Of a DNA stretch of 64,000 nt, positions 47,120 through 57,591 are shown piece after piece (the stretch's first letter is position 1; every line of letters starts with the position of its first letter). The stretch covers positions 2,046,001 to 2,110,000 of the forward strand of contig NZ_JAUSQU010000001.1 in NCBI RefSeq assembly GCF_030811455.1. The letters run 5' to 3'. The stretch is from Streptosporangium lutulentum. Lineage in GTDB: Bacteria; Actinomycetota; Actinomycetes; Streptosporangiales; Streptosporangiaceae. The position numbers and the translations under genes are program-made. The notes under the pieces were generated by a model. That model saw nothing but the letters and a program-made list of their open reading frames with translations, was not told where the DNA came from and ran no database searches.

Positions 47120-48178
47120 TCACGGAGCCGGGGGAGTCACCCGGGGGAGGGCGGGCATCGTTCGGACGGCCAGGACGACGAGTGCCGGCCCGCACAGCAG
47201 GAGCGCGACGAGCTGGCCGGCGGTCACGGCCGTCATGATCTGGCTGATCGGATCGACGGCCTGGAAGGTCAGGCCGGAGACGCGGGCGAGCGCCACGGGC
47301 ACGACCAGGATCGCCAGGGCCAGCGGCAGGGAGGGAGTCCGCCAGGCGGGAACCCGCAGGCGCATTACGGCACAGGTCACGCTCGCGGCCAGAAGGGCCA
47401 GGCAGGCCAGTCCCGACGGGTCCAGCCACGGCCACAACCATGACCAGGTCCACAGGTTGACGGTGGGTGCCGGCACGAACCTGCTCAGCAGGTCCAGGGC
47501 CGCGTAGAGCACGACGCCCGCGCCGACGGGCAGGGCGGCCACCCACGGGGGACGGCGTACCCGCGGCGCGTCACGATGGAATCCGGCCGACAGCGCCAGG
47601 ACGGACACCATGAGCGGAAGGCTCTGTACGATCGTGATCCACTCGCCGGAACCCCAGCTCAAGCCATTCGCGGGGAAGTAGTACAGCGCGAGCGCGAGCA
47701 ACGTCAGCGTCTTCGCGGCGCGCGGGCGAGCGCGGACGAGCGAGGCGAAGGCCGCGATCCACAGGAGGCCGCCGAGTCCTCGCGCGATGTTCCACAGCCG
47801 CTCCCCGGACCCGGCGGCGCCCAGGATGGTCTGGTAGTCGACGGGTGGCGAACCGAAGAGCCCGAGGGACCGCAGAAAGTCTCCCAGCCAGACGCAGCCC
47901 ATCATCGCCTGGAAGAACAGTCCCAGCACGGCCACCAGGCGGACCGCCTCACCCCAGGCGAAGAACCTCGGCGTCGCGCCGGTGCCCCCCAGGCGCACGC
48001 GGACCGACAGGGCGGCGACGCTGGCGATCTCCGACCAGCGCGGCCGGGGGTTGTCGGCATCGGAGAGATCTCCCGCCCCCTCCAGGAAGGCGCTGACCAT
48101 CTCCTCCTCCCGCCCGGCGCGGTAGGAGGCGGGCAACAGCCGCAGCACGTAGCGGTAGCGGTCTTCCAGAAGACTCAC
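47120..48178 (-). CDS. membrane protein partnered with PadR (permease-prefix-like N-terminus)
   Basis: 352 residues. The first ~40 (YRYVLRLLPASYRAGREEEM, VSAFLEGA) form the cytoplasmic prefix often seen on actinobacterial membrane proteins made with PadR regulators. Then about nine helices follow. No transport motif is evident. GTG at 48178 overlaps the PadR stop (GTGA), so the regulator and membrane protein form a two-gene operon. Confidence 0.8.
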   Translation of the reverse strand: MSLLEDRYRYVLRLLPASYRAGREEEMVSAFLEGAGDLSDADNPRPRWSEIASVAALSVRVRLGGTGATPRFFAWGEAVRLVAVLGLFFQAMMGCVWLGDFLRSLGLFGSPPVDYQTILGAAGSGERLWNIARGLGGLLWIAAFASLVRARPRAAKTLTLLALALYYFPANGLSWGSGEWITIVQSLPLMVSVLALSAGFHRDAPRVRRPPWVAALPVGAGVVLYAALDLLSRFVPAPTVNLWTWSWLWPWLDPSGLACLALLAASVTCAVMRLRVPAWRTPSLPLALAILVVPVALARVSGLTFQAVDPISQIMTAVTAGQLVALLLCGPALVVLAVRTMPALPRVTPPAP

Positions 48179-48513
48179 GCCACGCCCCCCGCATACCGGG
48201 CGCGCAGCCGCTCGCGGGCGCTTTCGACGTTCGCGGCCAGCCGTACGGCCTCCGCCTCCAGGGCGCGGGCCCCGGACTCGGTGAGCCGGTAGTAGCGGCG
48301 CAGCCGTCCCTGCTGCGCCTCCTCGCGGTCCAGCGCCACCAGCTCGTCGGCGGCCAGCCGGTCCAGCACGCCGTACAGCGTGCCGATCTTCAGATCCACC
48401 CGCCCGCCGGACAGCTTCTCGACCTCCCGCACGATCCCGTAGCCATGCCGTGACTCGTCGACCAGCGCGGTGAGGACGAGGAACGCGGGTTCCGTCATCG
48501 TTCGTGGACTCAT
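48175..48513 (-). CDS. PadR-family repressor
   Basis: About 112 residues. The winged helix is textbook: PAFLVLTALVDESRHGYGIV, then LKIGTLYGVLDRLAADELV, then RLRRYYRLTESGARALEAEA. The C-terminal helix is the dimer arm. ATG at 48513, 48498 or 48525 are all possible; no ribosome site decides. AATATATGATGG just upstream supplies a TATGAT -10 box. The IS630-type inverted repeat of the mobile nest begins 34 bases upstream of the start, so its promoter may be affected. Confidence 0.88.
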   Translation of the reverse strand: MSPRTMTEPAFLVLTALVDESRHGYGIVREVEKLSGGRVDLKIGTLYGVLDRLAADELVALDREEAQQGRLRRYYRLTESGARALEAEAVRLAANVESARERLRARYAGGVA

Positions 48514-48546
48514 GAATGCCATCATATATTGGGAAGCAGGATATTA

Positions 48547-48566
48547 GTGCCGCATCAGGCAACGTT
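48547..48566 (+). repeat. left terminal inverted repeat of the complex
   Basis: It includes the last codons and stop of the IS630-B transposase (read on minus: ...ANVA stop). TA precedes it. Confidence 0.85.
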
Positions 48567-48719
48567 TGCCCTGTTGACTACGGCACGTAGGCGCCGGTCG
48601 TCGGCGTGGCGGTTTCGCCAGATGATGTAGCGGCGGATCATGCTGCCTTGCTCTTTGTGGCTGGGGTGGTCGGTGCCGTCGAGGGTGAAGTAGCGCAGGG
48701 CGGTGAACTGGGCCTCGAT
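48555..48719 (-). pseudogene. C-terminal fragment of IS630-family transposase B
   Basis: 54 codons, IEAQFTALRYFTLDGTDHPS then HKEQGSMIRRYIIWRNRHAD, ending NRANVA. It holds the catalytic Glu of the DDE triad (the E of IEAQF). It is the continuation of the fragment at 52876-53425; the two rejoin at GAT to read SSWLNRIEAQF, a conserved family block. Confidence 0.85.
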
Positions 48720-48741
48720 TAACCGGCCCTGATCGGTGGGG

Positions 48742-50715
48742 TCAAGTATCGGTGCTTGGGGTGGCGTGTCGGGTGAGCCGGTCGAGGTGGCCTTGAAGGC
48801 TGGCGATGACGCGAGCGTGGCGGGCGATTTCGGTGTCCCAGCCGCGTTCGGCGGCATCGTCGCGCAGATGGGTGACGTCGGCGAGTTGGGCTTGGAGCGC
48901 GGGGATGAACTCGGTGGCGGTGACGAAGTTGTCGCATTGTTCGCAGATGTTGGCGTAGGGGCAGGCCTCTGCGGCCAACTGCCGAGAGCAGTAGCCGTGC
49001 GCCACCCGGGTCTTGAGCATCTCCTGGCGGAGCCATTGGATGCGATCGGGAACGATGGGCTTGCCGACGGGTGCGATGGTGAGGGTCAGTCGGGTGCGAG
49101 CCTTGCCCATGGCCTCGTCATAGGCGGCTCGGATAGTGGGCGCGGCCAGCGAAGCATAACGCAAGGTCATCTCGGTGGACACATGACCGAGTAGCGCCAT
49201 GAGCGCTTGCAGCGACATACCGGCGTTGACGAGATCGGTGGCGTAGGTATGGCGGAGCTGATGCGGGGTGAGGTTCAGAGGTTGTCCATCACGGCCGCGC
49301 AGTCCGGCGGCGGTGGCAGCGTCGTGGAGTCCTTGGCGCAGGCGGTAGGCGGTCAGCCGTCGGCCGCGTTCGAGGAACAGGAAGTCTGCCGGACGGTCCA
49401 GGCGGGGGTGGGGCAAGGCTCGCTGCGGGCCACGCAGGGCCATCCACTCGTCGAGGACGGCGAGGGTCGCCGCGTCGAGCGGGACGGTGCGTTCGGTGGC
49501 GAGCTTGCCGATGGGCACCTTCAACCAGCTGCCATGGCTGGCCGAGTCCCAGATGCAGTCCAGTTCGAGGTCGAGCAGCTCGCCGAGGCGGATGCCGGTG
49601 CCACGGAGCAGGATCAGCCCGATGCGGGCGAACGGGTCGGACAGCTGATTGATCGCGGCCAGCAGGTTCCGGTCGATGTCGGGTGCCAGTGCGCGTGGGA
49701 GTGGCTTGTCCAGCCGGGGGATGTCGCTGGGGAACAGCAGTCGGTGGGGTGGGCGCTCGCTCCAGCCCCACAGGGTCAGGTCGTCGAGGAAGCAGCGCAG
49801 GTCGATGATGCTTCGCTTGCTGACGACGGCGGAGACGGGCTGGTCGCGGGCCACACGGCCACGCCAGGGTCGCTTGTGGTTGTAGATGAGGAAGCCTTCG
49901 ATGTGCTCTCGGGTCAGCTCGGTCAAGTTGTGCACCCGGGGGTGGTGAGCGGCCAGGTATTCGGCGAAGGTGATCAGGCTGTCGGCGCGGAGATCGACCG
50001 TGTTCGGCCGCAGGGTCGTGGCCGCGGTGGTCAGGTAACGCAGCGCGATCTTGCGGATGTGTGGCTGAGGGATGGCGTGCAGGCGCTGCTCCAAGGTGGC
50101 CTTGACCGCTCTGGCCTGACGCGGTGGTCGCTGACAGATCCGTAGCTCGTAGCAGGCTTGATGCAGGCTGAAGGCTCGCGAGGAGTTGTGCGTCCAGGTG
50201 TGCGGACCGGCGCTGGGCGCAGCGGCCAGGGCGTGAGCGAAGGCGTCGAAGGCGTCGTCGGTGAGTTCATCGAGGGTCTTGCCGCTGGTGAGGCAGAGCA
50301 GGCTCAGCCCGCCGCGCGAGACGTCCTTGGTCCAGGTGGCGCTCCAGCCGAACCGCTCAGCGATCTGGACGATGCGGGCGACATCGTCGGGGTGACGTGA
50401 GGTCCACTCCTGGTAGAGGTCGCCGGGGTTCTTGGCGATCAGGAGGTCCAGGTCAGGTCGCAGGTGTCCTTCGACGAAGCACCAGGTGAGGAACGACCAG
50501 GCGCCGGTGCGTTGGAGGTCGGCCAGCCGGACGGGTGTGGGTCTGGTCATCCATTCGGCCGGTCGGGGGTGGATCGTCAGCAGGCGCTGGGCGGCGTTGC
50601 GTCGCAACCGCTTGGCGTCCGGGCCGATGGGCAGCTGGGCAACTGCCTCGGCATAGGCCACCAGCAGGTCCGGCGATCCTTGCCGGCGCAGCGTGAGGGC
50701 GGCTGGGGCGCTCAT
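48742..50715 (-). CDS. tnpB: TnpB-like tyrosine recombinase of the Tn554-type element
   Basis: 657 residues, close to Tn554 TnpB (about 630). The N-terminal ~300 bind DNA (core-binding SAM-like region around RPNTVDLRADSLITFAEYL). Catalysis: GTGIRLGELLDLELD (Arg), NLTPHQLRHTYATDL (HxxR) and TLRYASL (Tyr nucleophile), with GHVSTEM before it. After the catalytic domain a Cys cluster, YCSRQLAAEACPYANICEQC, resembles the zinc-type tail of TnpB proteins. ATG at 50715 overlaps the tnpA stop (ATGA). Intact, so it could still act. Confidence 0.9.
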   Translation of the reverse strand: MSAPAALTLRRQGSPDLLVAYAEAVAQLPIGPDAKRLRRNAAQRLLTIHPRPAEWMTRPTPVRLADLQRTGAWSFLTWCFVEGHLRPDLDLLIAKNPGDLYQEWTSRHPDDVARIVQIAERFGWSATWTKDVSRGGLSLLCLTSGKTLDELTDDAFDAFAHALAAAPSAGPHTWTHNSSRAFSLHQACYELRICQRPPRQARAVKATLEQRLHAIPQPHIRKIALRYLTTAATTLRPNTVDLRADSLITFAEYLAAHHPRVHNLTELTREHIEGFLIYNHKRPWRGRVARDQPVSAVVSKRSIIDLRCFLDDLTLWGWSERPPHRLLFPSDIPRLDKPLPRALAPDIDRNLLAAINQLSDPFARIGLILLRGTGIRLGELLDLELDCIWDSASHGSWLKVPIGKLATERTVPLDAATLAVLDEWMALRGPQRALPHPRLDRPADFLFLERGRRLTAYRLRQGLHDAATAAGLRGRDGQPLNLTPHQLRHTYATDLVNAGMSLQALMALLGHVSTEMTLRYASLAAPTIRAAYDEAMGKARTRLTLTIAPVGKPIVPDRIQWLRQEMLKTRVAHGYCSRQLAAEACPYANICEQCDNFVTATEFIPALQAQLADVTHLRDDAAERGWDTEIARHARVIASLQGHLDRLTRHATPSTDT

Positions 50716-51718
50716 GACTGCCTCGCCCGGGCCTTGGCGTACTCGGCCGCGAGAATTTCTGGGGCAAGGTGCACGTAGGCGGCGGTGGTTTCGGGGTTGG
50801 TGTGGCCCATCAGGTCACGCAAGACCAGCAGGTCGATGCCGGCGGCGGCTAGTTCGGTGCCGTAGGTGTGGCGCAGCCGATGCGGCCGGACCCGGGTCGC
50901 GCCGGAGGTCTGCCGATGCGTGCGGAAGATCCGCCGCAATCCCGCCTCGGTGAGTGGCCGGCCAGTGGCCGGCCCACGCAGCACGACGAAACATTCGGCG
51001 CTCAGGCACCCGGCGGGGCGTTCCTCGCGCAGGTAGGCCGATAGTTCGGCGAAGAACGCGCCATCGACCGGCACGAGGCGTTCCTTACCACCTTTACCCG
51101 TGACGCGGACGCGGCGCAGTCCCATGTCCACCTGTGCCAGCCGCAGCGAGCGGACTTCCGCGGCGCGTAGCCCGCCCAGCAGCATCAACAAGACGATCGC
51201 GCGATCACGGAAAGTACGCAGATCGGCCAGGAAGACGGCGATGTCGTCCGGGTCGAGCGCCTCGGGCAGCAGACGCGGTTGGCGGACCAGTCGTCCGCCG
51301 GTGCGGGGCTTACCCGCTCCGATATGACCGAGCAAACCACGCTGTTTGGCCCGCAGGCCGCTGGACCGGCGGGCCGCCGGGACCGGATTGTCGGCACGAG
51401 TTCCGGTCGTGACGGCGAATTCGAAGAGTCCCCGCACGGCGGCGATTCGCCGGTTCATCGTCGCCGGTGCCGCGCCACGCCGTTCGGCCAGCCGCACCAC
51501 CGTGCCCGTGCTCGCGCCAGGGCGCTGCTGCCAGGCCAGATAGTCGAACAGATCGGTGGCCACCACATCGCCCAGCCCGGACAACCGCTCGGCCAGGAAC
51601 CGCAAGAAGTTGAGCAGGTCATAGGCGTAGGCCCGCACCGTTGCCGGCGAGAACGCCCGCGCTCCCAGATGCGCCAGGAACTGGTTGACCAGTTCAGTGT
51701 CTTGGCCGCTTCCACTGA
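50712..51718 (-). pseudogene. tnpA: TnpA-like tyrosine recombinase, main part, start cut off by IS5-like element
   Basis: Catalytic residues are present: LLGGLRAAEVRSL (Arg), RPHRLRHTYGTEL (HxxR), GHTNPETTAAYVHL (Tyr). Core-binding part MRAYAYDLLNFLRFLAERL precedes. Reading upstream the frame (DTELVNQFLAHLGARAFSPA) runs into the IS at 51719. The lost first codons lie at 52726-52771; joined at CACTGA they give a 348-residue protein, near Tn554 TnpA (361). An internal GTG at 51638 might start a shortened protein. Confidence 0.82.
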
Positions 51719-52725
51719 GGTGATCTCAGCAAGATCAATAAGGGCGGTTGCGATTCGATGCCTCTAAAATGACGTCGGCAGACATGAATCGGGATGGATC
51801 GCGATGCCCCTGAAACAGGCGTGGAGCTTTCGGTAGAAGAGGTCTCACCACAAGTCTTCTTCGATCCAGAAAGCCCCACGTGATCACCTATCGTGCCACG
51901 CTTGACGTCTCTCGGGAGCTGGTTTGCCACCTCTCCCTGCTGCTGTCGGCCGAGCGCCGCCGACTGGGCACCCGCTCGGGTTCTCGGGCTCTGACCTGTT
52001 TTGAGCAGGCGGTGATGGGGTTGCGCTGGTTTCGCGACCGCACCGACCGGGCTGCCCTCGGCCGCGACCACGGCGTCTCCCGCGCCACCGCCTACCGCTA
52101 CATCGACGAGGTCATCGACGTCCTGGCCGACCAGGCGCCCGATCTGCACCACGCCCTGCGGCGCGCCACCGACGCCGGCCTCACCCACCTGATCTTGGAC
52201 GGCACCGTCATCGCCACCGACCGCTGCGCCGAGAAGACCATCAGCGTCAAAGGTGAACCCATCGACCTGTGGTACTCCGGAAAGACCCGCCACCATGGCG
52301 GTAACATCCAGGCGCTGTCCGCGCCCTGCGGCCTGCCGCTGTGGGTGTCGGCCGTCGAGCCCGGATCGGTGCACGACCTGACCGCCGCCCGCACACACGT
52401 CCTGGGAGCGCTGTACAAAGCCGCCGCCGACGGCCTGCCCACCTTGGCCGACTCCGGCTACGACGGTGCCGGCATCGGCATTCTCACCCCGGTCAAACAC
52501 CCCGCCGACGGCCGGCCCCTCGACCTCGACACCCGCACCCGCAACGCGCTCCTGCGCGCCCTACGCTGCCTGGGCGAACGCGGCTTCGCCCTGCTCACCC
52601 AACGCTGGCGCACCCTCCAGCGCATCACCGCCAGCCCCAGCAGAATCGGCGACGTCGTCAAAGCCGCACTCGTTCTCACTCATTTCGAACACGGCTACCT
52701 GAAATGAAAGTCGCTGAGATCACTT
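51719..52725 (+). mobile_element. IS5-like insertion sequence
   Basis: About 1007 bp with inverted ends GTGATCTCAGC (51720-51730; complement 52713-52723). CACTGA flanks it on both sides (51713-51718 and 52726-52731), part or all of which is the target duplication. It splits tnpA. Confidence 0.82.
51880..52707 (+). CDS. IS5-family transposase (DDE_Tnp_4 type)
   Basis: 275 residues. An N-terminal helix-turn-helix (TCFEQAVMGLRWFRDRTDRA, DHGVSRATAYRYIDEVID), then DDE motifs: LILDGTVIATDR (Asp), ALSAPCGLPLWVSAVEPGSV, and TLADSGYDGAGIGI (second Asp). The late Glu is probably the one in LGERGFALL. GTG at 51880. The frame is complete, so the element may be active. Confidence 0.88.
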   Translation: MITYRATLDVSRELVCHLSLLLSAERRRLGTRSGSRALTCFEQAVMGLRWFRDRTDRAALGRDHGVSRATAYRYIDEVIDVLADQAPDLHHALRRATDAGLTHLILDGTVIATDRCAEKTISVKGEPIDLWYSGKTRHHGGNIQALSAPCGLPLWVSAVEPGSVHDLTAARTHVLGALYKAAADGLPTLADSGYDGAGIGILTPVKHPADGRPLDLDTRTRNALLRALRCLGERGFALLTQRWRTLQRITASPSRIGDVVKAALVLTHFEHGYLK

Positions 52726-52771
52726 CACTGATGCGATGACCGTCGCCAGTCAGAATGACACGCTGCCTCAT
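52726..52771 (-). pseudogene. tnpA: detached start of tnpA
   Basis: ATG at 52771 with a strong GGGGGAGGG site reads MRQRVILTGDGHRIS to the CACTGA duplication and is in frame with the main tnpA part. This fixes the IS5-like insertion point at about codon 15. Confidence 0.82.
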
Positions 52772-52875
52772 GGCCCTCCCCCAGGGACACCAGCCGATTC
52801 TGACGGCTGCCGACTCCCCGATGGAGAACCTCAGGCAACCCGGGCGAGTCCTCCGCCCGAAGGCCGGTTAACAGA

Positions 52876-53425
52876 GATGCGGTTCAGCCACGAGGAGTTG
52901 GTCGGGGTGTAGGCGATCTCGACGTTGTTGGCCTCGGCCCAGTCCGCTACCCTGCGGCACCGCTTGGTGGTCAGGTGCGGGGAGTAGGTGTCGCACACGA
53001 TCGCCAGGCGGACGTTTGGCGGGTAGAGGGTCCGCAGGTAACGGTAGAACTCCAGGAACTTCGACCGGTTCTTGGTCTTCTTGATGTGCCCGTAGAGCTT
53101 GTCCCTGGCCAGGTCATAGGCAGCGAACAGGTGCCGCACCCCGTGGGGGCGGGTGTAGGTCGCGCGGCGTCTCGGTCGGGGTTCGCGGTCGGGGTCCTTG
53201 TGCGTGCCGCCGCGTTCGGCCCACTGGCGTCCCGGATGCGGCTGGAGGTTCAGCGGCCCAAACTCGTCCATGCAGAACACCACCTCCGGTTCGCCTTTCT
53301 CGGGTATGACCTCGCCATCGGCGATCGCGTGCAGGTGCTCGACACGAGCCTTCTTGGCCGGGTAGTCCGGGTCGTGGGAGGTCTTCCAGGTCTTCACCCG
53401 TTGAAAGGTGACGCCTGCCGGGTCG
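52876..53425 (-). pseudogene. middle fragment of IS630-family transposase B
   Basis: About 183 codons: GVTFQRVKTWKTSHDPDYPA, the first catalytic Asp in VVFCMDEFGPLNLQPHPGRQ, second Asp in LAIVCDTYSPHL, and IAYTPTNSSWLNRI at the joint. The frame then runs into the Tn554-like end (SVNRPSGGG). Upstream it is cut at 53426 by an inverted repeat CTATCGCAGATAAC, and the N-terminal helix-turn-helix part is missing from the window. Confidence 0.83.
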
Positions 53426-53531
53426 CTATCGCAGATAACCGCGTGAAGTCAGCAGCTCCCCGAGGAATTCCACCCCGCCCCGTAGGGAGTGCGGCCCGAA
53501 CACGCCAGAGACGGCCCGAGCGCCGGGCCTC

Positions 53532-54104
53532 CTACGGGAACTGCTTCACCTCGCGGCCGATGTCGTCGATCGGGCCGAGGATCGTCCAGCCGGGCCCGAG
53601 GGGGCGGGTGGAGCGGAAGCCGTGGGCGTCCGCGTACTCCTCGGCCTCCTCCGCGGTGTCCTCGGGTGCGCGCATGATCGTGTAGCGCGGGGGGTCCTCG
53701 TGGTAGAAGCGGTAGAACGTGCGGCCCTCGTCCTTGGGCTGGTAGAGGATCACGCTGACGCCCCAGAGGGCGTCGTACACCTTCTGGTCGCGCGGGGGCG
53801 TCGTCGTGCACGTGTCGGAGGGGCGGCCGGGCTCGCGGACGCAGGTCCGGTACCCGCTCCAGTCGATGCGTTCGGCGCGGGGGTGTTCCGCGATCAGCTT
53901 CCGCATCCGGGCGTCGGCCCGGGCGAAGGCGTCCTCGCGGCGGTCGTACTCCTGCTGCAGCCGGTTGAAGCGCTGCTCGTCGAAGCCGCTGCCGAAGTGG
54001 GCCTCCAGGCCCGCGAGGACGGCGACCCACCAGGCCAGGTACCCGGCCGTCACGACGAGCAGCGTGACGACCAGGACCCGGCCCGGCGAGCGCCTGTGGG
54101 GCAT
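53532..54104 (-). CDS. single-pass membrane protein, possible immunity partner
   Basis: 190 residues from ATG at 54104: one helix (VLVVTLLVVTAGYLAWWVAV), a coiled charged stretch (FNRLQQEYDRREDAFARADA), then a globular end with one CVREPGRPSDTC pair and RYTIMRAPEDTAEEAEEYAD. Family not recognised. It starts 13 bases after the toxin-like fragment on the same strand, the usual layout of polymorphic-toxin and immunity genes; that role is inferred. No strong ribosome site is seen. Confidence 0.6.
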   Translation of the reverse strand: MPHRRSPGRVLVVTLLVVTAGYLAWWVAVLAGLEAHFGSGFDEQRFNRLQQEYDRREDAFARADARMRKLIAEHPRAERIDWSGYRTCVREPGRPSDTCTTTPPRDQKVYDALWGVSVILYQPKDEGRTFYRFYHEDPPRYTIMRAPEDTAEEAEEYADAHGFRSTRPLGPGWTILGPIDDIGREVKQFP

Positions 54105-54117
54105 CAGGTCGGCGAGG

Positions 54118-54390
54118 TCAGAACGTGCCGCTGATGGGGATCTCGATGTCCGCCTGCGCGATCGGCGTGGGGTATTTCCCGTCGAACCGGTCATAGTGCT
54201 GGAGCGTAAACCAGTCGATGAAGCCGTGCTCCGTGATCTCGTCGTCCGGGTCGAGACCGAAGTGGTCGTAGGAGTGGAAGACGAGCTTGCCGGAGAAGGA
54301 GTTGCCCTCGACCTTGTAGTCCTTCAGCGCGATCGTGTGGCCGTGGAACTGGTGGATCGCGATGGAGAGGGCGCGCTGGGCCGGTACTGC
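54118..54390 (-). pseudogene. C-terminal remnant of a toxin-like (DUF3289-resembling) gene
   Basis: Reading LSIAIHQFHGHTIALKDYKV, then FHSYDHFGLDPDDEI, then IDWFTLQHYDRFDGKYPTPI, ending EIPISGTF. The pattern resembles the end of DUF3289-type domains found at C-termini of polymorphic toxins; this is from memory of the family and moderate. The frame further upstream (to 54693) loses protein-like character, so the gene was cut near 54390. Confidence 0.5.
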
Positions 54391-54591
54391 GTTCGCGTCG
54401 ACAGTGCCATCGACCTGTCCACGGCGATAGTGCAGGTCACCCTGAGGGACGACCTCAACAAAACCTACGGAGCCTGGACAGCGCCGCGTGCCGAATGCAG
54501 CAACGCGGCCAACACCGTCATGGTCGCTGTCAACACCCCAGATACCCCCTTCGCAGCCGCCGACTCCGCGTTCTTTCTGACCATCCCCTAG
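54391..54591 (+). pseudogene. C-terminal remnant of an unknown plus-strand gene
   Basis: The frame reading STAIVQVTLRDDLNKTYGAW, then APRAECSNAANTVMVAVNTP, ending DSAFFLTIP has strong GC third-position bias typical of real coding, and starts without a start codon at the same point where the minus-strand remnant stops. Family unknown. Confidence 0.45.
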
Positions 54592-54908
54592 GTCTGACCA
54601 GATCGCCGCGGTGTCGGCCTCACAACGTGGCCCACCGCGGCGCAGGACGTGCACGAGGACTCGCTTCCCCCGATGCTCCGCGCGTAAGCACACGACCCCT
54701 TCCTAACGTATTCCGGCCGCGCCCCCGTGGGGTCATCATGGTCCGGCTATCGCAGACACTCGGCAGTTATCTGCGATAGATCGTCACAGAGCGTACAAGC
54801 GCACGATCCAGTTCCGATGTTCCTCACACCCCTTACACGGCTATTCAGGTGTTGAGCGTTCTGCGGTATGGGATTGGGAGCACTGATCCCAACGGTCGAT
54901 CAACGTCA

Positions 54909-55308
54909 TCACTCCGTATAGACCTGCCACCACCGATCTGCCAGTGCTCGGGTTACTTCGGCGTCGTACTGATCGGCGTCGAAGTGAAACGTCGGGGGGG
55001 CGCACATGATCAACGGGTACCTGCCAATCGGACCACTCGACGATGCCAGCGTGACGCTGTACGAACACCGACAGGTAGCCGCAGCATCCGCCCGTGCACG
55101 CAGGTTCCCCCAGCACTACGCGTCGCCCCTCGCCGGTTGCCCAGAACGGACTGTGACCGTCGGCAGGCGGCGCCTTCTCCGCAAGCGGGCCGCGGCCTCC
55201 CTCGCCGACCGCCTCTGCCGGCACTTCCTCGCCGTCGACCCAGAGCTGCAGTTGGGCGGCCCATCGGGGCCCCGGTGGCAACGCGCTGACTTCAAGCCGA
55301 TTGAACAC
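54909..55308 (-). pseudogene. frameshifted hypothetical gene (G7/C7 run)
   Basis: First frame from GTG 55308: LEVSALPPGPRWAAQLQLWV, EPACTGGCCGYLSVFV and GIVEWSDWQVP, which looks like an uncharacterised actinobacterial family with a CTEGCCG-type motif. Past the G7 run at 54994-55000 the sense continues in the next frame as PTFHFDADQYDAEVTRALAD to TGA at 54911-54909, matching how this family ends. One base changed in the run would restore about 133 residues. Could be decay, a sequencing slip or phase variation. Confidence 0.65.
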
Positions 55309-55402
55309 CCGAGCACCCTACGTGGGAACTGGCCGCCGCAGGTCCGCTCCTACAGCCGAATGTGGGCGGCTGGCCAAATACAAGCCCATGTCACAGAGGG
55401 CG

Positions 55403-55422
55403 AACGTTGCCTGATGCGGCAT
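55403..55422 (-). repeat. right terminal inverted repeat of the complex
   Basis: AACGTTGCCTGATGCGGCAT, followed by TA at 55423-55424. Inverted partner of 48547-48566. Confidence 0.85.
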
Positions 55423-55540
55423 TAGGTCTGCCATTTCATGTGGCGTCGTCCGATGTGAAGCCGCCCGGTTCCGGCCCTGTCGTCCCGGCGGGCGGTGATG
55501 ATCGGTCGGGACCGGCCGCCTCGCGCACGGGGTGCCCCGG

Positions 55541-56700: not shown

Positions 56701-57591
56701 TCAGCCCTCCCCGCCCGCCAAGCGCAGGAGGAACCGGGTTTCCCGGTCGAGCGGGCCGCGGTTCAACCGGGGGACGGCGATGAGGGCGGCCGTCGCCCGG
56801 CACCAGCCCATGAGCCGGTCGGCGTTCACCTCCGGGTTCAGCGCGGCGAGGCGGGCGATGTTCTCCTCCAGGTCGTGAAGTTCGGTGACGTGGTCGAGAA
56901 CCCAGTCGACGCCGTCGAACGTGGGATCGCCGACGCTGGGCCGCGGGTCGATCACGACGAAGCCGTGGCCGTGGCTGACGAGAACGTTTCCGGGGTGCAG
57001 GTCGCCGTGGACCAGCCCGGCCGGGCCGCCGGAGGCCAGGGCGAGCGCGGCGGCGCGATGACGATCGAGGAGATCGCGGTCGAGGTGCCGCTCCGCCGGA
57101 TTTCCCCGCCATCGGCCGAGGGTCAGGTCGAAGATGAAGTCGACGCGCTGCCGGAGGGTGGGCAGCTCCACGTCGGGGACATCGGCCAGGCGGAGCGAGC
57201 GGAGAAGCAGCGCGACGTCCTCGATCGGCAGCCGGTCGACCCGGGTGCCGGGTTCCACGGCGGCCAGCAGCAGCGATCCCGACGTGTCGTCGGAGTCGAT
57301 CAAACGGACCACGTGAGGACTGTCCTCCCATGCCCGGAGCGCGGACGCCTCGGTGATGCCGATCTCCGGCTCGGGAGTGAGCTTGAGAAAGGCCGGGACG
57401 CCGCCGGCCCGCCGTACGTGGAAGGTCCGTGAGGTGTTGCCCGCCGTGACGGCGGCGACGATCTCCAGGTCCCAGCGCCGGGCGAGCCTTTCCAGAAGCG
57501 CGGGCAGGGCGGCGAACCAGTCGTGGAAACCAGGCCCGAACCGGCTGACGAGCCTGGTCTCGGTGGCCGGATCGAGGGTCAGATCGAGCAT
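56701..57591 (-). CDS. APH(6)/streptomycin-6-kinase-type aminoglycoside phosphotransferase family protein
   Basis: 296 residues. The kinase-fold lobe has VPAFLKLTPEPEI (ATP Lys), the catalytic loop is LVHGDLHPGNVLVS and the metal Asp block is FVVIDPRPSVGDPTFDGVDW, which fits the APH(6)/hydroxyurea-kinase family (VIDPxPxVGDP). ATG at 57591; the frame extends 13 codons more without merit. It may give resistance to streptomycin-like drugs or phosphorylate an unrelated metabolite; family membership alone does not show resistance. Confidence 0.88.
   Translation of the reverse strand: MLDLTLDPATETRLVSRFGPGFHDWFAALPALLERLARRWDLEIVAAVTAGNTSRTFHVRRAGGVPAFLKLTPEPEIGITEASALRAWEDSPHVVRLIDSDDTSGSLLLAAVEPGTRVDRLPIEDVALLLRSLRLADVPDVELPTLRQRVDFIFDLTLGRWRGNPAERHLDRDLLDRHRAAALALASGGPAGLVHGDLHPGNVLVSHGHGFVVIDPRPSVGDPTFDGVDWVLDHVTELHDLEENIARLAALNPEVNADRLMGWCRATAALIAVPRLNRGPLDRETRFLLRLAGGEG

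What the first reader, a model, noticed from the sequence alone, without database searches (positions are those of the whole stretch)
48545..55424. Nested mobile elements within one IS630-type boundary
Inverted repeats of 20 bp (one mismatch at the outer base) with TA on both sides bound 6.9 kb. Inside, from outer to inner: a broken IS630 transposase, a Tn554-like element inside it, and an IS5-like element inside that element's tnpA. A separate segment with 14-bp inverted ends adjoins the IS630 remnant. The order of events can be read: IS630, then Tn554-like, then IS5-like. If TA is a true target duplication, the whole 6.9 kb could still move as one unit given transposase in trans.
Basis: partly seen in the sequence, partly recalled or inferred. 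Interest (0 to 1): 0.8.

Follow-up and report, generated by a model that had tools for sequence, protein, structure and literature searches.

The report
Wrecked cargo-carrying IS630 transposon, thrice invaded
A 6.9-kb stretch of a soil bacterium's chromosome is the wreck of a jumping gene that once carried an extra gene and was later invaded by three other mobile elements; its intact relatives often carry single extra genes of many kinds.

Summary
Inverted arms 48545-48572 and 55397-55424 match at 26 of 28 positions, far above chance, and intact relatives of the parent element were found. In 2 of 10 orthologous promoters TTAG stands uninterrupted at the site; no genome with both flanks joined was found.

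The right end is a true IS630 end: on a Streptomyces plasmid the same passenger gene lies between IS630 transposase N-terminal pieces and this terminal repeat.

Three elements broke it. (2) An actinobacterial Tn554-like two-recombinase element. (3) An IS5-like element inside that.

Wider result: 35 of 73 complete relatives of this IS630 carry extra DNA, mostly one gene, of about 26 kinds by eye; several passenger-bearing units occur at different sites with equal 4-base flanks. That is a new variant of a known kind (transporter IS). The host genome holds no close full-length transposase, so present mobility is unlikely but not excluded.

The parts
48544..48547 (.). left copy of the 4-bp target duplication TTAG
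   Evidence: sequence; the same word on both sides in L001 and L098 (CTAA in transposase direction), ATAG on both sides in L109, TTAG in L167
48548..48572 (+). IS630 terminal inverted repeat beside the transposase C-terminus
48558..48719 (-). IS630 transposase, C-terminal part (about residues 322-376)
   Evidence: 91% identity; DNA 87-93% to L001/L002/L005
48720..52875 (-). Tn554-like element (with IS5-like insert), between two GAT trinucleotides; inner ends TTAACCGGCC / GGCCGGTTAA
   Evidence: IS630 homology stops at 48719 and resumes at 52876 with a 3-bp overlap in L001/L002/L005; sequence at the ends
48742..50715 (-). long tyrosine recombinase, 657 aa
   Evidence: Phage_integrase E 1.5e-25; about 50% identity to Rhodococcus plasmid recombinases
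50712..51638 (-). short tyrosine recombinase, 308 aa of it open, 5' part interrupted by the IS5-like element
51718..52725 (+). IS5-like element, 1008 bp, with 5-bp duplication CACTG (51713-51717, 52726-52730)
   Evidence: two further copies in the own genome at 100% (rounded), flanked by CAGTG or CACTG on both sides; DDE_Tnp_4; NF033581 below cut-off
52870..53418 (-). IS630 transposase, middle part (about residues 143-325); residues 1-142 missing
   Evidence: (80%), DDE_3, IS630 model
53417..54832 (.). Tn3-derived miniature element carrying a 1.2-kb cargo, left end lost; right 38-bp terminal repeat 54795-54832
   Evidence: cargo-free 234-bp relative L082 988-1221 aligns to 53417-53487 and 54725-54831; repeats
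53528..54379 (-). toxin-tip plus immunity-type cassette, 852 bp
   Evidence: 98.7% L204 and 97.3% L003 with the same two ends; 97.8% L205 (828 bp); 94.6% L206 (716 bp)
53532..54104 (-). protein in immunity position, 190 residues, open; 182 of 191 columns (stop included) as in the S. fungicidicus plasmid gene
   Evidence: no Pfam match
54118..54379 (-). C-terminal fragment of a DUF3289-type protein; its N-terminal trunk is absent
   Evidence: DUF3289 E 1.8e-10
54904..55396 (-). passenger region of the IS630: frame-broken relative of a 137-residue plasmid protein
   Evidence: 81-85% to L185, L186, L187, L004, L188; intact homologues L189, L190, which lie outside any IS630
55397..55421 (-). IS630 terminal inverted repeat beyond the passenger
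   Evidence: same layout in L185
55422..55425 (.). right copy of the target duplication TTAG

Best explanation
A CTAG-preferring IS630-type element carrying one passenger gene upstream of its transposase inserted at TTAG, about 20 bp upstream of the start of a PadR-family gene, duplicating 4 bp. It was then broken by three events: (1) a Tn3-derived miniature element, holding a toxin-tip/immunity-type cassette, lies upstream of the transposase, and a deletion beside it removed its own left end and the transposase N-terminus; (2) a Tn554-like two-recombinase element entered the transposase near its C-terminus at GAT; (3) an IS5-like element, present in two other practically identical copies, entered the short recombinase. 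Shown: the homologies, junctions, flanking repeats and the parent layout. Inferred: the order of (1) relative to (2), the deletion, and cut-and-paste by a DDE transposase. The 6.9 kb is a relic; it could move only if a matching transposase arrived.
For: Ends: 26 of 28, next best in the window 11 mismatches. Parent: L001, L002 (both 1229 bp) and L005 (1501 bp). Right end: L185 has transposase N-terminal pieces, the same passenger and the terminal repeat in this order; L186, L187 and L004 have the transposase N-terminus plus passenger, and L188 a 70-bp stretch of IS630 DNA plus passenger. Duplication: 58 CTAG/CTAG and 4 equal non-CTAG pairs among 73 complete copies, and a sister IS in the same genome with one ATAG/ATAG copy against five CTAG/CTAG copies, all about 99.8-99.9% identical. 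Uninterrupted TTAG in L013 and L025. Tn3-derived part: L082 is the same miniature without the cargo. Tn554-like type: long plus short recombinase pair as published for Actinobacteria (PMC3414803, passages). IS5-like: two near-identical copies elsewhere with matching flanks.
Against: No genome with both flanks joined: the first 39 bases of the right flank match none of the 15 other genomes of the genus, and in G004, G005 and G008, where both flanks find strong matches, these lie far apart or on different contigs. Only 2 of 10 orthologous promoters have TTAG at the site. 9 of 73 copies have unequal 4-mers, four of which (L104, L111, L123, L171) differ only in the outermost base, as a 2-bp TA duplication would give. 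54833-54903 (71 bp) matches none of the five relatives that carry this passenger. L082 shows no 5-bp repeat at its ends. One of two relatives of the long recombinase that I opened (L192) lacks the adjacent short partner.
Confidence: 0.86

Rival explanations
1. Two separate IS630 ends: the left one from an IS630 copy, the right one from a second copy or solitary end, brought together by deletion, so that the 6.9 kb was never one insertion.
For: The transposase N-terminus is missing and foreign DNA lies between the two ends. Own-genome contig C2 has a miniature of about 170 bp with both ends, so stray ends exist.
Against: The flanking word matches at all 4 bases including the non-palindromic T; in L185 the same passenger is joined to IS630 transposase N-terminal pieces on one side and the terminal repeat on the other.
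Confidence: 0.08
2. The duplication is the textbook 2-bp TA and the equal outer bases are coincidence or end mutation.
For: Published IS630 and ISY100 duplicate TA (PMC2170065, passages); four copies fit TA only.
Against: Four non-CTAG pairs plus the window are equal at all four bases, and the sister IS shows ATAG/ATAG in one of the six near-identical copies examined.
Confidence: 0.1
3. The 6.9 kb is still a working non-autonomous unit, moved now and then by a related transposase.
For: Both ends are nearly perfect; passenger-bearing relatives are found at different sites.
Against: No close full-length transposase in the genome, the 48% relative has different ends, the left-end DNA query finds one full match in the genome, the window itself, and the insert is large and full of other elements.
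Confidence: 0.05

Closest known systems
IS630 / ISY100 (IS630-Tc1-mariner group)
   Same: Transposase family (NCBIfam NF033545 153 bits, cut-off 100, on the L002 copy), single transposase gene, terminal inverted repeats, TA at the centre of the target
   Different: 4-bp rather than 2-bp duplication, strong CTAG preference, frequent passenger genes
Transporter IS (tIS)
   Same: IS derivative with passenger genes of other function (definition seen in PMC9330008, passages)
   Different: Passengers on either side of an IS630-type transposase; no IS630 example was seen in the listings
MITEPsy1 of Pseudomonas syringae (PMC3189936, passages)
   Same: 4-nt duplication at CTAG or YTAA, the same words as here
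   Different: A 100-nt miniature that the paper assigns with a question mark to IS5 (ISPsy2-derived), not compared by sequence here
Actinobacterial Tn554-like elements (PMC3414803, passages)
   Same: One long (611-828 aa) and one about 350-aa tyrosine recombinase, adjacent, some without TnpC
   Different: Window copy is interrupted by an IS5-like element and sits in an IS630 transposase
[quoted passage not shown]
   Same: 38-bp Tn3-type ends, no transposase, about 0.25 kb when empty (here 234 bp in L082)
   Different: Different host phylum; cargo sits inside one miniature, not between two; left end lost in the window
Polymorphic toxin tip plus immunity modules (class recalled, from no call)
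   Same: C-terminal domain of a large DUF3289 protein with a small gene behind it, nearly identical across genera
   Different: Here cut from its trunk and enclosed in a mobile element

Membership tests
IS630 family | IS630-type DDE transposase | tested here: met
   Window pieces match DDE_3 and the IS630 model (window fragment 66 bits, below the 100-bit cut-off; intact relative L002 153 bits)
IS630 family | TA duplicated at the insertion site | tested here: met
   TA lies inside the duplicated TTAG
IS630 family | duplication of exactly 2 bp, as measured for IS630 and ISY100 (PMC2170065) | tested here: not met
   4-bp duplication best supported; so called a variant of the IS630 kind, by transposase, not a textbook member
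Transporter IS (tIS) | relatives: passenger gene inside the IS ends, moved with it | tested here: met
   35 of 73 complete copies with extra DNA, 32 of these 35 with equal 4-mers; the same passenger at different sites in L124/L131/L153, L144/L086, L101/L146. Movement is inferred from this, not observed
Transporter IS (tIS) | the same for the window copy | tested here: inconclusive
   Passenger present between transposase side and end but frame-broken; layout as in L185
Actinobacterial Tn554-like | adjacent long and short tyrosine recombinases | tested here: met
   657 aa and a second one adjacent; intact pair of 651 and 351 aa in L191, but L192 has other neighbours
Actinobacterial Tn554-like | sequence kinship to Tn554 TnpA/TnpB | not tested
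   Tn554 itself was not compared; 25 Staphylococcus records are among the 480 matched by the long recombinase, rows not opened
TIME | 38-bp Tn3-type terminal repeats at both ends | tested here: not met
   Right end present 54795-54832; left end lost in the window; both present in L082, the right one with its outermost base altered
TIME | 5-bp target duplication | not testable with these tools
   Left end lost. Larger Tn3-type relatives L081 and L084 show TGGAC and GGAAT on both sides; L082 and L083 show none (read)
IS5 family | IS5-type transposase | tested here: inconclusive
   NF033581 118.6 bits, cut-off 140; DDE_Tnp_4 85.1 bits, cut-off 24.8

The most novel reading that the evidence does not exclude
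The parent belongs to an actinomycete IS630-type clade that works as a single-gene shuttle: it duplicates 4 bp at CTAG, gains passenger genes on either side of the transposase by switching to a more distal end while the old inner end decays, and then moves the gene as part of the IS. The window is a fossil of one such shuttle that later became a landing place for a second gene-carrying element with a toxin-immunity cassette.
Probability: 0.6. Interest if true: 0.62.

Novelty: new variant of a known kind. Interest (0 to 1): 0.5.

Why it matters
Nested insertions are common, so the wreck itself is ordinary. What it led to is less so: an IS630-type group in soil actinomycetes in which 35 of the 73 complete copies examined carry extra DNA, mostly one gene (methyltransferase, deaminase, hydrolase, acetyltransferase, regulator, SUKH immunity-type and others), and whose 4-bp duplication departs from the 2-bp rule measured for IS630 and ISY100. 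If it holds, a simple IS would be a frequent carrier of single genes between genera, and passenger-bearing copies with decayed inner ends give a readable record of how genes are captured.

Tried and rejected
Two unrelated IS630 ends brought together: rejected because of the equal TTAG pair and the L185 layout. TA duplication with a mutated outer base: disfavoured. The 14-bp repeats as the ends of an element: rejected; they are inner sequence of a Tn3-derived miniature. RIT elements (three recombinases) for the recombinase pair: rejected, only two recombinase genes are present. A joined empty site in the 15 other genomes of the genus: none found. The passenger region in 250 genomes of the family: apart from the window only short matches (about 25-80 bases, to the miniature's right end, the IS630 end and scattered stretches); it was found on Streptomyces plasmids instead. 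Bounds of the Tn554-like element from relatives: the longest DNA match in 150 genomes is 70% identical, ends not recoverable. Function of the passenger: no Pfam match for its intact homologue L189.
Full report
Setting. The window lies at G000:C1:2046001-2110000 of a 10.6-Mb genome in 3 contigs. Genus by inference: the IS630 copy of L072 (genome G007, same genus as the window) has the same 8-base flanks as L152 of Streptosporangium sandarakinum, so the window is probably from a Streptosporangium.

The ends. The arms 48545-48572 and 55397-55424 pair at 26 of 28 positions. Over the 64-kb window the left arm has 2 mismatches at 55397 and at best 11 elsewhere. They are IS630 ends: copies on Streptomyces plasmids NBC_00376 (L001), NBC_01727 (L002) and NBC_00872 (L005) have such ends (0-4 mismatches in the 24-bp core) around a 1.13-kb transposase gene. 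The window keeps the transposase in two pieces, 48545-48719 and 52876-53416, 82-93% identical to those copies, which abut in the intact copies with a 3-bp overlap GAT. About 142 N-terminal residues are missing.

The right end. Between 54904 and 55396 lies a stretch that five of the 13 matching plasmid records hold over 75-88% of the query at 81-85% identity. In L185 (NBC_01483) it sits between IS630 transposase N-terminal pieces and an IS630 terminal repeat with 2 mismatches, and the match runs through the repeat up to window 55421. L186, L187 and L004 show the transposase N-terminus followed by this stretch, and L188 a 70-bp stretch of IS630 DNA followed by it; no repeat was found in the held DNA of these four. 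So the right end belongs to an IS630 that carries a passenger. The passenger's intact homologues are 137-residue proteins outside any IS630; the one tested has no Pfam match, and it lies near an RNase A-like protein gene and a contact-dependent-inhibition immunity gene. The window copy is frame-broken, as is L004's. The 71 bp 54833-54903 match none of the five relatives.

The duplication. I examined 103 loci (the 80 kept of 420 relatives, plus 23 from plasmids and family genomes); 77 had both ends with at most 5 mismatches in the 24-bp core, 73 after removing 4 exact duplicates. Copies at contig edges may still be counted twice: L116-L119 all lie at contig edges of one assembly and could be two insertions. 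Of 73: 58 are CTAG/CTAG; 4 are equal but not CTAG (L098 and L001 CTAA, L109 ATAG, L167 TTAG); 2 lack the left flank; 9 are unequal, of which L104, L111, L123 and L171 differ only in the outermost base. The window reads TTAG/TTAG, that is CTAA/CTAA in transposase direction. A sister IS630 in the same genome (48% transposase identity) has 8 matches covering residues 4-363. Of the six copies I held, five are CTAG/CTAG and one, L218, is ATAG/ATAG, although all are 99.8-99.9% identical to L213. This favours a 4-bp duplication. CTAG occurs 10 times in the 64-kb window and 0.57 times per kb in the loci against 2.9 expected from base composition, so equal CTAG pairs are not chance. Published IS630 and ISY100 duplicate TA (PMC2170065, passages); a 4-nt CTAG or YTAA duplication is in print for the unrelated-looking miniature MITEPsy1 (PMC3189936, passages).

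Empty site. The left flank is the promoter region of a PadR-family gene. Of ten orthologous regions printed from related genomes, L013 and L025 read GATA-TTAG-G where the window reads GATA-TTAG-[element]-TTAG-G; the other eight differ at the site. No genome has both flanks together; in G004, G005 and G008 the two flanks' best matches lie far apart or on different contigs. The test is therefore consistent but not complete.

The three invaders. (1) 53417-54832 is a Tn3-derived miniature. Its right 38-bp end (54795-54832) is of a type that one search found in opposite orientation on one contig in seven family genomes (two candidates scored per genome). Read, L081 and L084 have 5-bp duplications TGGAC and GGAAT; L082 and L083 have none. 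L082 (genome G004) is the same miniature, 234 bp, with both ends and without cargo: it matches 53417-53487 and 54725-54831, 8 bases of L082 being used twice. The window copy has lost the first 64 bases, including the left end, just where the transposase N-terminus is missing, which suggests one deletion. The cargo contains an 852-bp block (53528-54379) shared at 98.7% with G023, 97.3% with a Streptomyces fungicidicus plasmid (these two with the same two ends), 97.8% with G213 (828 bp) and 94.6% with G039 (716 bp). It holds the tip of a DUF3289 protein, without its trunk, and the following small gene in an open frame. I read it as a toxin-tip/immunity module by position only. (2) 48720-52875 is a Tn554-like element: a 657-residue and a shorter tyrosine recombinase adjacent, a class described for Actinobacteria (PMC3414803, passages including the abstract). 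It lies between two GAT trinucleotides with inner inverted 10-mers. Of two relatives of the long recombinase opened, L191 has the pair and L192 does not. (3) 51718-52725 is an IS5-like element with CACTG on both sides; two other copies in the genome are 100% identical after rounding, with CAGTG or CACTG on both sides, so it is the youngest. Whether (1) or (2) came first cannot be told.

The wider group. Among the 73 copies 35 are longer than 1.3 kb; extra DNA lies upstream of the transposase in 26 and downstream in 10, L075 counted in both. By eye these are about 26 different passengers (not clustered). For 22 of them I tested one reading frame each, chosen by eye; 16 had a Pfam match: MerR (two), methyltransferase, cytidine deaminase, glyoxalase-type (three), isochorismatase, HAD, SUKH (two), hexapeptide, alpha/beta hydrolase, GNAT, APH-type partial frame, mycothiol-transferase type. 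Six had none (L127, L155, L157, L160, L161, L005) and four were not tested (L115, L132, L151, L171). Three more passengers (His-phosphatase L069, HxlR plus tautomerase L072, DUF899 L091) are in copies outside the 73. 32 of the 35 have equal 4-mers at their outer ends, against 30 of 38 for copies without passenger. The same passenger occurs at different sites in L124/L131/L153, L144/L086 and L101/L146, so passenger-bearing units have probably moved as units. In L112 and L086 a decayed inner end with TTAG or CTAG remains next to the transposase, and in 5 of the 6 downstream-passenger copies printed the inner end stops right after the stop codon (L171 aligned differently). Of the 26 upstream-passenger copies, homology to a plain copy reaches into the terminal repeat in only 4 (L086, L112, L135, L144). 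Capture by use of a more distal end is therefore an inference that fits some copies.

Mobility now. The closest transposase elsewhere in the genome is an N-terminal piece (residues 1-228, 79%), and the nearly full-length relatives (48%) have different ends. The unit is best seen as a relic.

Literature. Ten searches were made. The listings for passenger genes in IS630 elements, which are partly capped, showed no title or abstract start that describes such a group. I opened six papers, by passages only (PMC9330008, PMC4133298, PMC2170065, PMC3189936, PMC8024623, PMC3414803); subscription journals and ISfinder were not searchable.

Noticed in passing
L092 from 1424 (G000:C2 about 57223-57390): A miniature of about 170 bp with both ends of this IS630 type on the 87-kb contig of the same genome, keeping IS630 sub-terminal DNA.
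   Followed up: partly
window 53528-54379; L204, L003, L205, L206: An 852-bp DUF3289-tip plus small-gene block is 95-99% identical in genomes of four other genera, so it has spread recently; the small gene stands in the window without the toxin's trunk.
   Followed up: partly
L081, L084 (G023:C4, G002:C1): Tn3-type 38-bp ends with 5-bp duplications bound 3.2-kb and 8.2-kb segments; one reading frame looked at in each gave a weak integrase match and a glycosyltransferase match.
   Followed up: partly
G000:C1, L213-L218: A second IS630-type element in the same genome, 8 matches covering residues 4-363 of the transposase query, with CTAG/CTAG or ATAG/ATAG flanks in the six copies held.
   Followed up: yes
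window 54380-54724: Beyond the toxin-tip cassette the cargo contains the 3' end of an unrelated open frame on the + strand, about 70% similar to DNA in G233 and G211.
   Followed up: no
window 48175-48547: The IS630 sits about 20 bp upstream of the PadR-family gene's start, beside a conserved GATAT motif shared by ten orthologous promoters; it may change that gene's control.
   Followed up: no
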